Of a stretch of 13,858 nt of DNA, positions 4,885-6,259 are shown piece by piece. Numbering within the stretch: position 1 is the first letter of the stretch; each line of letters opens with the position of its first letter. The translations under genes were made by a program, and so were the position numbers. Below the pieces are notes generated by a model that saw only the letters and a program-made list of their open reading frames with translations, was not told where the DNA came from and ran no database searches. Source of the stretch: Cyclobacteriaceae bacterium (GTDB taxonomy: Bacteria; Bacteroidota; Bacteroidia; Cytophagales; Cyclobacteriaceae); contig JALWRJ010000411.1 in the NCBI GenBank assembly GCA_026994125.1, positions 1 to 13,858 of the forward strand, read 5' to 3'.

Positions 4885-5450
4885 AACTAGACAACATACA
4901 AAACCCGGCTAGCATTCCGGATGACTTCCCGGGCAAAGTAATACCTGGGGGAAACGGTGCCAACATTATTGTTACCTCGTTCGACAAAATTGTTAACTGG
5001 TCGCGCTCAAATTCGCTATGGCCACTTACGTTTGGTACCAGTTGCTGTGCCATCGAAATGATGCAAACCGGAGCTGCCCGCCACGATTGGTCGCGTTTTG
5101 GGTTTGAAGTAGCCCGAGCTACACCCCGCCAGGCCGATATGATTGTGATTGCAGGCACCATTGTAAACAAAATGGCGCCTGTGTTGCGCAGGCTGTACGA
5201 GCAAATTGCCGACCCCAAGTATGTAATTGCCATGGGGGCTTGTGCCATTTCGGGTGGCCCATTTTTTTATAATACCTACTCGGTAGTTAAAGGAGCCGAC
5301 CATATAATACCCGTAGATGTGTATGTGCCGGGTTGCCCCCCAAGACCCGAAGCCCTGTTAGATGGAATTATGAAATTGCAAGATAAAATTAAGGGATCTT
5401 CCATGGCCGATAAAAAACCAACCCTAGAGGATTTTGATAAAGGATTGTAG
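4875..5450 (+). CDS. nuoB: Complex I subunit NuoB (PSST), cluster N2
   Basis: This 191-residue peripheral subunit holds the terminal [4Fe-4S] cluster N2, which passes electrons to quinone. The ligands are the tandem C57-C58 (GTSCCAIEMM), C123 (MGACAISGG) and C154 (PGCPPRPE). The frame is open upstream to 4764, but the ATG at 4875 is chosen because everything earlier is out-of-frame nuoA sequence and gives no NuoB-like residues. The C-terminus looks complete, ending in a charged tail. The stop TAG shares its last base with the GTG start of the fic gene. Confidence 0.95.
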   Translation: MGVELDNIQNPASIPDDFPGKVIPGGNGANIIVTSFDKIVNWSRSNSLWPLTFGTSCCAIEMMQTGAARHDWSRFGFEVARATPRQADMIVIAGTIVNKMAPVLRRLYEQIADPKYVIAMGACAISGGPFFYNTYSVVKGADHIIPVDVYVPGCPPRPEALLDGIMKLQDKIKGSSMADKKPTLEDFDKGL

Positions 5451-6259
5451 TGGATAAAGTAGTCCAATATATCGAAAAATTTAAAGCGCTTGAGCTAGAT
5501 AAAGTAATAGATTTTAATAAATTCAATTTAATAGCTATTACTTCGCACAGCACTCAAATTGAAGGAGCTACTTTGTCAATAGAAGAAGCTTCTTTGCTGC
5601 TGAATGATGGAATTACTCCAAAAGGGAAGCCTCTGGAGCATTCGCTTATGGTAAAAGATCACCATAATGCGTTGTTAGAAGTACTTAAAAAAGTCCAAAA
5701 CTTTTCATCATTATTTAATGAAAAGTTAATTTGCGATATAAATAGGGCTGTAATGAAACATACAGGCCAAAAATACAACACTCCACTAGGACAAGTAGAT
5801 GCTGCCAAGGGCGAGTTAAGAAAAGGTGCAGTTTTTGTTCAAAAAAGATATTTTCCGGATTATAAAAAAGTTCCGGGATTACTTAATCAATTATGCAAGG
5901 AACTAAATGAAAGGATAACTCAAAAATTATCGGTTAGGCAACAAATAAACCTGGGGTATAGTGCTCATTTTAACCTGGTCAGTATCCACCCATTTTACGA
6001 TGGAAATGGAAGAACCGCTAGATTAATGATGAACTTGATTCAAAAATACTTCGACATGCCGCTATCTATTGTATATGCAGAAGATAAACTGGAATACTTT
6101 GCAGCTATTGAAAAAAGTAGAGAAACCGGGAGCATAGAACCCTTTAATGTGTTTATGGATGCTCAGTATATTAAGTTTTTGGCAAGTGAAATAGAATTAT
6201 TTGAACAGCAGGTTAAAAGAAACGGTAAAGGAAACAATACCATGTCATTATTGTTTTAA
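5450..6259 (+). CDS. fic: Fic-domain protein inside the nuo operon
   Basis: This is a 269-residue Fic enzyme, a family that usually transfers AMP (or another phosphate-containing group) from a nucleotide to a target hydroxyl. The catalytic motif H180-PFYDGNGRTAR191 is complete, with catalytic His180 and an Asp/Gly/Asn/Arg anion hole. The N-terminus carries STQIEG (34-39), matching the inhibitory [ST]xxxE[GN] motif, with Glu38 as the expected blocking residue, so it reads as an autoinhibited class II protein. The start is GTG at 5450: an in-frame stop lies at 5438-5440, and the next Met (67) would delete the inhibitory helix. It overlaps the nuoB stop by one base and ends eight bases before nuoC. 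Four hand-counted 60-base rows gave 25-40% G+C, against 57% in two nuoB rows, so acquisition by transfer is likely. The target is unknown. Confidence 0.93.
   Translation: MDKVVQYIEKFKALELDKVIDFNKFNLIAITSHSTQIEGATLSIEEASLLLNDGITPKGKPLEHSLMVKDHHNALLEVLKKVQNFSSLFNEKLICDINRAVMKHTGQKYNTPLGQVDAAKGELRKGAVFVQKRYFPDYKKVPGLLNQLCKELNERITQKLSVRQQINLGYSAHFNLVSIHPFYDGNGRTARLMMNLIQKYFDMPLSIVYAEDKLEYFAAIEKSRETGSIEPFNVFMDAQYIKFLASEIELFEQQVKRNGKGNNTMSLLF

What the first reader, a model, noticed from the sequence alone, without database searches (positions are those of the whole stretch)
5450..6259. Intact autoinhibited Fic enzyme seamlessly embedded between nuoB and nuoC
nuoB and nuoC are normally adjacent. 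Here a complete Fic gene with catalytic HPFYDGNGRTAR and an N-terminal STQIEG inhibitory motif lies between them, same strand, with a one-base TAGTG overlap upstream and eight bases downstream. It is clearly AT-richer than nuoB, suggesting acquisition. Yet there are no flanking repeats or disrupted ends, so the arrangement seems selected rather than a raw insertion. A Fic enzyme made in step with complex I and KorAB could modify a subunit of either, or sense nucleotide state; it might also merely use the operon promoter. I do not recall a described Fic-complex I linkage.
Basis: partly seen in the sequence, partly recalled or inferred. Interest (0 to 1): 0.78.

Follow-up and report, generated by a model that had tools for sequence, protein, structure and literature searches.

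The report
Fic cargo in complex I operon
A small gene for an AMP-transferring enzyme sits inside the operon for respiratory complex I, most likely not because it regulates complex I but because this spot repeatedly picks up defence and toxin-antitoxin genes in this family of bacteria.

Summary
An intact 269-aa Fic gene (5450-6259, GTG start overlapping the nuoB stop by one base) lies between nuoB and nuoC, eight bases before nuoC, with the class II inhibitory motif and a complete Fic motif. The proposed Fic-complex I link does not hold. Of four congeners, two have nuoB-nuoC joined and two carry other cargo at the same point: an MntA-like nucleotidyltransferase beside a decayed ORF. None has a close relative of this Fic (draft genomes, 81-99% complete). 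Among 148 nuo loci of the same family, B-C held an insert over 250 b in 11 of 142. Eight of these were defence or toxin-antitoxin type: Fic 1, MNT 2, and an AbiL-like ATPase-TOPRIM pair 5, in five genera. A-B held 0 of 144. C-D held 10 of 136, eight of them a four-helix-bundle gene and none a defence gene. In 6 of the 12 genomes found with that AbiL subfamily, it lies between nuoB and nuoC. Best reading: the Fic is horizontally acquired, SoFic-like cargo at a recurrent in-operon landing site. The site, not the Fic, is the new finding. Fic activity, target and expression are untested.

The parts
5450..6259 (+). Fic gene, 269 aa, class II type: autoinhibited AMP-transferase by motif; the cargo
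5549..5566 (+). inhibitory motif STQIEG (residues 34-39; E38 invariant), at the C-terminal end of predicted helix 22-37
5987..6022 (+). Fic active-site motif HPFYDGNGRTAR (residues 180-191)
4875..5450 (+). nuoB; its stop overlaps the Fic GTG by one base
6260..6267 (+). 8-base spacer between the Fic stop and the nuoC start
6268..6771 (+). nuoC; stop overlaps the nuoD start by 4 bases (ATGA)
4534..4884 (+). nuoA
6768..7895 (+). nuoD
7914..13764 (+). rest of the operon in the window: nuoH, I, J, K, L, M (no ORF for nuoE, F or G between D and H)
   Evidence: ORFs; nuoI; labels H and J-M from recall and order, consistent with the homologous runs
1675..4532 (+). KorA-KorB, 2-oxoacid:acceptor oxidoreductase alpha and beta, upstream in the same run of genes

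Best explanation
The Fic gene is horizontally acquired, self-contained cargo: a class II AMP-transferase of the SoFic/phage-defence-candidate type, carrying its own inhibitory helix. It landed at a recurrent in-operon docking point for defence and toxin-antitoxin genes, the nuoB-nuoC junction in this family (Cyclobacteriaceae, judged from names of matching records). Shown: intact gene and motifs; predicted fold; foreign composition; some plasmid relatives beside recombinases; different cargo or no cargo at the same point in congeners; enrichment of defence/TA cargo at B-C against A-B and C-D. Inferred: it is transcribed and translated with the complex I operon (same strand, one-base overlap), so it needs no promoter of its own. 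It is held silent by its own helix. When inhibition is lifted, by phage attack or stress, it AMPylates a host target and stops growth (abortive infection or dormancy). Complex I is its host operon, not its substrate.
For: Congeners: G098 and G092 have nuoC starting 2-3 b after the nuoB stop; G014 (380 b) and G099 (1211 b) carry MNT-type genes at the same point. The three occupied genomes form one clade, with the empty pair outside it (UFBoot 100). PADLOC: Fic matches PDC-S04 3e-22 and SoFic 5e-22; both MNTs match PDC-S09 (4e-24, 2.5e-24); of the AbiL pairs, two (G261, G141) were scanned: AbiLi 1.6e-43 and 1e-40, PDC-M38B 1.6e-9 and 8.7e-9. The other AbiL loci are assigned by 40-41% (AbiLi) and 30-43% (partner) identity to G261. 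The G014 MNT hits NCBIfam MntA at 43.6 bits, under its cut-off of 60. Junction survey: defence/TA cargo at B-C in 8 of 142 loci, against 0 of 144 (A-B) and 0 of 136 (C-D); Fisher p 1.4e-4, or 4.4e-4 counting 7 events. The AbiL subfamily occurs in 12 of 390 family genomes, 6 of them between nuoB and nuoC. Intact B-C cargo is same-strand in 8 of 9 loci. Fic relatives on plasmids: recombinase gene directly upstream in 2 of 4 regions viewed, transposase or recombinase within 4 kb in 3 of 4. No nuo gene near any of 18 chromosomal Fic relatives.
Against: No expression, activity, toxicity or defence data exist for this Fic. SoFic membership fails NCBIfam's cut-off (26 of 550 bits), and the protein lacks SoFic's C-terminal part. 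Matches to PADLOC 'candidate' models are not proof of defence. The Fic itself is seen at this site in one genome. Occupied loci are few (11 of 142) and come from a listing cut at the best-scoring nuoB rows. Three of the 11 inserts are not defence cargo (L061, L062, L090). The AbiL copies could be one ancient insertion that was mostly lost. The C-D junction also collects a gene, so B-C is not the only permissive point. Loci are not phylogenetically independent, which the Fisher tests ignore apart from merging the two MNT loci.
Confidence: 0.72

Rival explanations
1. The Fic is a dedicated regulator that AMPylates a complex I or KorAB subunit, or reads nucleotide state to tune respiration.
For: Same strand, tight packing, intact active site. 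Other nucleotidyl-transfer genes (MNT, and a DUF2204/AbiEii-like NTase) occur at the same point in congeners.
Against: Not conserved: absent in 4 of 4 congeners and the only Fic in 148 nuo loci. None of 18 chromosomal relatives lies near a nuo gene, and other relatives are on plasmids. Cargo identity changes while complex I does not.
Confidence: 0.06
2. The cargo is an ancient, vertically inherited resident of the nuoB-nuoC junction (one AbiL insertion in a family ancestor, later replaced by MNT and Fic in this genus and lost in most lineages), not a set of independent landings.
For: Five of six AbiL loci have the same architecture, with the AbiLii stop overlapping the nuoC start as ATGA. The three occupied congeners are one clade, and their two MNTs are 83% identical.
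Against: Joined junctions also show a 4-b overlap in 40 of 131, so ATGA is the local norm. The five nuo-located AbiLi proteins put in a tree do not group together: their common ancestor spans 55 of 71 tips and includes copies located elsewhere (the context of 60 tips is unknown, and G102 was left out). Presence is scattered over genera.
Confidence: 0.15
3. Chance: small genes slip into operons everywhere and B-C is not special.
For: C-D collects a four-helix-bundle gene in 8 of 136 loci. Fic and AbiL relatives also lie behind other genes.
Against: 0 of 144 at A-B. Cargo class differs by junction: defence/TA 8 of 142 at B-C against 0 of 136 at C-D; four-helix bundle 0 of 142 against 8 of 136. 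Six of 12 genomes with the AbiL subfamily carry it at one point of a multi-megabase genome.
Confidence: 0.12
4. Assembly chimera in a fragmented MAG (602 contigs).
For: Single contig; no second assembly carrying this protein turned up.
Against: Both junctions are exact and on the same strand. Sister species carry other cargo at exactly the same point, and named isolates appear to carry AbiL there.
Confidence: 0.03

Closest known systems
SoFic / class II Fic AMP-transferases (Shewanella SO_4266; single-protein anti-phage system)
   Same: Single protein; N-terminal inhibitory helix with invariant Glu; HPFxDGNGRxxR; PADLOC SoFic 5.3e-22. PMC12249575 (passages read) calls Sofic class 2, toxic, and acting by abortive infection.
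   Different: 269 aa, matching only to position 273 of the 361-position SoFic profile, so no C-terminal domain; NCBIfam SoFic cut-off far from met; Foldseek match to SO_4266 only E about 3e-6. Only 8 b to nuoC, so no room for a downstream small gene like the AS1 antitoxin of that paper.
FICD/HYPE and Bacteroides BT_2513 (PDB 4u04, 6i7g, 3cuc)
   Same: Best solved relatives by sequence and fold (TM by query 0.72-0.78 in the top rows).
   Different: FICD has TPR motifs and an ER chaperone substrate (titles and abstracts listed). 21-25% identity in the top rows.
HEPN-MNT (HepT-MntA) type VII toxin-antitoxin
   Same: Cargo at the same point in G014 and G099 is an MntA-like nucleotidyltransferase. 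Abstract starts of PMC7641770 and PMC11586414: the MNT antitoxin nucleotidylates the HEPN toxin.
   Different: In these genomes the partner is only a remnant with no Pfam match (the G099 piece has no PADLOC match either), and the one MntA scored against NCBIfam is below its cut-off.
AbiL / OLD-like AAA ATPase + TOPRIM defence pairs
   Same: AAA_15/21 ATPase (AbiLi 1.6e-43) + DUF3226 partner, two genes in tandem.
   Different: The partner matches AbiLii only weakly (7e-6) and an OLD-like TOPRIM model below its cut-off. No function tested in this family.
Defence hot spots between core genes (for example the E. coli pan-genome, PMC10121019, abstract start only; the core-gene framing is recalled)
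   Same: A fixed chromosomal point that holds different defence genes in different strains.
   Different: Here the point lies inside a run of housekeeping operon genes, cargo is mostly one or two genes, and no integrase or flanking repeats were seen.

Membership tests
Fic AMP-transferase (class II) | Fic domain with HPFx[D/E]GNGRxxR (motif recalled) | tested here: met
   PF02661 58.1 bits; motif residues H180, G185-R188, R191 invariant in the window's protein and 48 homologues
Fic AMP-transferase (class II) | inhibitory helix with SxxxE-type motif N-terminal to the Fic core, same chain | tested here: met
   STQIEG at residues 34-39, E38 invariant, helix 22-37 in the model. N-terminal helix = class 2: PMC12249575, passages; SxxxE named for NmFic in PMC3667792, passages. 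Packing against the active site was not measured.
Fic AMP-transferase (class II) | transfers AMP to a protein; inhibited as wild type | not testable with these tools
   needs purified protein
SoFic anti-phage system | NCBIfam SoFic equivalog score | tested here: not met
   26.1 bits against a cut-off of 550
SoFic anti-phage system | AMPylase domain plus C-terminal domain | tested here: not met
   269 aa; SoFic profile matched only to position 273 of 361
SoFic anti-phage system | protects against phage | not testable with these tools
   -
Recurrent defence-gene landing site | same junction, different cargo, empty in relatives | tested here: met
Recurrent defence-gene landing site | defence/TA cargo enriched over neighbouring junctions | tested here: met
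   8 of 142 against 0 of 280; only A-B and C-D served as comparison, and phylogeny was not modelled
Recurrent defence-gene landing site | insertion mechanism: integrase, target duplication or att site | tested here: not met
   no exact repeat of 7-14 b at the Fic edges; no integrase-like ORF recognised among the insert ORFs, which were read by eye and partly scanned
Complex I regulator | conserved linkage to nuo genes across lineages | tested here: not met
   1 of 148 nuo loci; 0 of 4 congeners

The most novel reading that the evidence does not exclude
The nuoB-nuoC junction in these bacteria is a purpose-like dock where abortive-infection enzymes are expressed in lock-step with respiratory complex I, so that defence is primed in respiring cells or triggered when phage upset respiration or nucleotide pools. 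Cargo is exchanged (Fic, MNT, AbiL) but the position, strand and translational coupling are kept by selection.
Probability: 0.12. Interest if true: 0.85.

Novelty: new variant of a known kind. Interest (0 to 1): 0.5.

Why it matters
Defence hot spots are usually described (recalled) as islands at tRNAs, in prophages or between core operons. A recurrent point inside a housekeeping operon, with mostly one- or two-gene cargo and no visible mobility machinery, would show a quieter route by which immunity genes spread and gain expression: borrowing the promoter and ribosome flow of a respiratory operon. It gives a cheap search rule (read the nuoB-nuoC gap) for new defence genes in this family, and named isolates (Fulvivirga imtechensis, Marinoscillum furvescens, Imperialibacter) appear to carry the arrangement. 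It also warns against reading an operon neighbour as a functional partner.

Tried and rejected
Fic as complex I regulator: rejected as the main reading, since the link is not conserved. Chimera: unlikely. Direct repeats at the insert edges: none of 7-14 b. Nuo-linked Fic elsewhere: no nuo gene within the DNA held for any of the 18 genome-contig loci (neighbours of 17 also read by eye). That scan used six short peptide patterns, and several loci end close to the Fic, so it is not exhaustive.

Order outside the family: I paired nuoB and nuoC rows by eye, not by script, and counted 75 adjacent pairs, the largest raw gap about 340 b. The other rows had the two genes far apart, on different contigs, or one not listed, and were not counted. 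Against 9 of 127 in the family's first pass this gives Fisher p 0.03.

First pass: 138 of the roughly 150 nuoB rows listed were entered; about 12 whose nuoC row was not listed were left out. Of the 138, 11 had no nuoC on the same contig and strand and were dropped, leaving 127: 116 joined, 9 with inserts, 2 with the genes 17-20 kb apart. In some searches the listings were cut ('more matches are not listed').

Second pass: 148 loci = the window, 10 earlier fetches, 40 operons picked from joined or unpaired rows, 97 others. Together these are nearly all nuoB rows listed; at least rows G158 and G229 were not fetched. Not measurable: 4 A-B, 6 B-C, 12 C-D. Cargo shorter than 250 b would be missed. 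Two C-D gaps are not gene inserts (L142 a broken nuoD frame, L061 no ORF). Two B-C gaps hold no intact ORF (L061, L090), and L062 holds an opposite-strand ORF with no family above cut-off.

AbiL tree: context is known for 11 of 71 tips; 60 of the 119 other homologues listed were used (every second one), and G102 was left out.

Papers. PMC12249575 and PMC3667792: passages only. PMC7641770, PMC11586414, PMC10121019: start of abstract in search listings. No listed row on a Fic-complex I link or a nuo-operon defence hot spot was found (10 of 88 listed; 0 papers; 1 of 1; 6 of 9; 8 of 31; open-licence PMC library only).

Full report
Observation. The window holds KorA-KorB, then nuoA, B, [Fic], C, D, H, I, J, K, L, M on the + strand (labels of nuoH and J-M by order and recall, consistent with the homologous runs). 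The Fic ORF is 5450-6259, 269 aa, GTG start. It shares one base with the nuoB stop and ends eight bases before nuoC. The NuoB query finds one match in this genome, so this appears to be its only complex I operon (genome 91% complete).

The protein. Pfam gives only the Fic domain (58.1 bits). In an alignment with 48 homologues of 48-67% identity, the inhibitory glutamate E38 and the catalytic H180 with the GNGRxxR core are invariant. The AlphaFold2 model is confident (pLDDT 93.8, pTM 0.91). Its closest solved folds are FICD and Bacteroides BT_2513; Shewanella SoFic comes lower. By PADLOC it matches the candidate family PDC-S04 (3e-22) and SoFic (5e-22), but it falls far below NCBIfam's SoFic cut-off and has no SoFic C-terminal domain. 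So it works, by motif, like a class II Fic; it is not shown to be SoFic.

Origin. GC3 is 29.3 against 36-48 for the 12 nuo and kor genes measured. The best protein relative is 66% identical. On plasmids the ten best records (about 41-50% identity) are all Bacteroidota; in two of four regions viewed a recombinase gene lies directly upstream, and in three of four a transposase or recombinase lies within 4 kb. None of 18 chromosomal relatives has a nuo gene in the DNA held around it; by eye the neighbours of 17 are mostly unrelated to one another, apart from sister MAGs such as L039 and L040.

Congeners. The genus has five genomes. G098 and G092 have nuoB and nuoC joined. G014 has a 380-b and G099 a 1211-b insert at the same point. 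Both inserts begin with an MNT nucleotidyltransferase (PDC-S09 4e-24 and 2.5e-24; the two are 83% identical; the G014 one scores 43.6 bits against NCBIfam MntA, below its cut-off of 60). It is followed by a short, decayed ORF that I read as the HEPN partner from its position and a short motif; no model confirms this (Pfam for both pieces; PADLOC for the G099 piece). G099 adds a 66-aa ORF and a DUF2204/AbiEii-like nucleotidyltransferase. The occupied genomes form a clade, with the empty pair outside (UFBoot 100). None of the four congeners has a close relative of the window's Fic (best E 2e-8, 30% identity); they are drafts of 81-99% completeness.

Family. In 295 family genomes, 127 nuoB-nuoC pairs could be read from the listing. 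Of these 116 are joined, 9 hold roughly 370-1600 b between the genes, and 2 have the genes far apart. Fetching them showed in four other genera a two-gene module, AAA ATPase + DUF3226 protein, that matches AbiL. A search with that ATPase found it in 12 of 390 family genomes; in 6, of six genera, it lies between nuoB and nuoC.

Control. I then measured junctions A-B, B-C and C-D in 148 fetched loci. Gaps above 250 b: A-B 0 of 144; B-C 11 of 142; C-D 10 of 136. The B-C cargo is Fic 1, MNT 2, AbiL 5, an opposite-strand ORF 1, and no intact ORF 2. Eight of the C-D gaps hold a gene of 123-143 aa; one (L102) is the TIGR02436 four-helix-bundle family (83.7 bits, cut-off 24) and the other seven are 58-79% identical to it. 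Defence/TA cargo is thus 8 of 142 at B-C against 0 of 280 elsewhere (p 1.4e-4; 4.4e-4 if the two MNT loci count as one event). Intact B-C cargo is co-directional in 8 of 9 loci. In 5 of 6 AbiL loci the last cargo stop overlaps the nuoC start as ATGA, the commonest arrangement of empty junctions (40 of 131). Outside the family but within the order I saw no insert in 75 adjacent pairs paired by eye.

Reading. The Fic is one cargo at a recurrent landing point for defence and toxin-antitoxin genes inside the complex I operon. Shown: recurrence, different cargo at one point, decay of one cargo, foreign composition. Inferred: co-expression, silence by the inhibitory helix, and abortive infection or dormancy on release. 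Not shown: any action on complex I or KorAB. Whether the AbiL copies are independent landings or one old resident is open; their tree does not group the five nuo-located copies used, but most tips lack context.

Novelty. Fic, MNT and AbiL are known kinds. A defence-gene landing point inside a respiratory operon without mobility genes was not found described in the rows listed by my searches; those cover open-licence papers only.

Noticed in passing
L102 3529-3960; also L147, L153, L159, L164, L186, L199, L200 (nuoC-nuoD junction): A gene of 123-143 aa (TIGR02436 four-helix bundle in the one tested, L102; the others 58-79% identical) sits between nuoC and nuoD in 8 of 136 family loci and in none of the B-C junctions: a second, differently loaded spot in the same operon.
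   Followed up: partly
L062 1896-2618 (G013): A 240-aa hydrophobic ORF on the opposite strand between nuoB and nuoC, no family match above cut-off; breaks the same-strand rule.
   Followed up: partly
window 107-688 and 716-910: Two very AT-rich ORFs (GC 28.7 and 26.2%) with no Pfam match, upstream of korA; possibly another recent arrival.
   Followed up: no
window 1002-1346 (- strand): YfhL-type 4Fe-4S ferredoxin, divergent from korA (87.2 bits, cut-off 86); a plausible electron carrier between KorAB and a complex I without nuoEFG (inference).
   Followed up: no
L068-L072 (five genomes of genus g17): The same AbiL-like pair also sits, outside nuo, close behind a same-strand gene in L068, L069, L070 and L072 and before a convergent gene in L068, L070 and L071, so it may favour 3' ends of genes.
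   Followed up: no
L055 3278-4066: A relative of the Fic split into two ORFs, apparently a decayed copy or a sequencing error.
   Followed up: no
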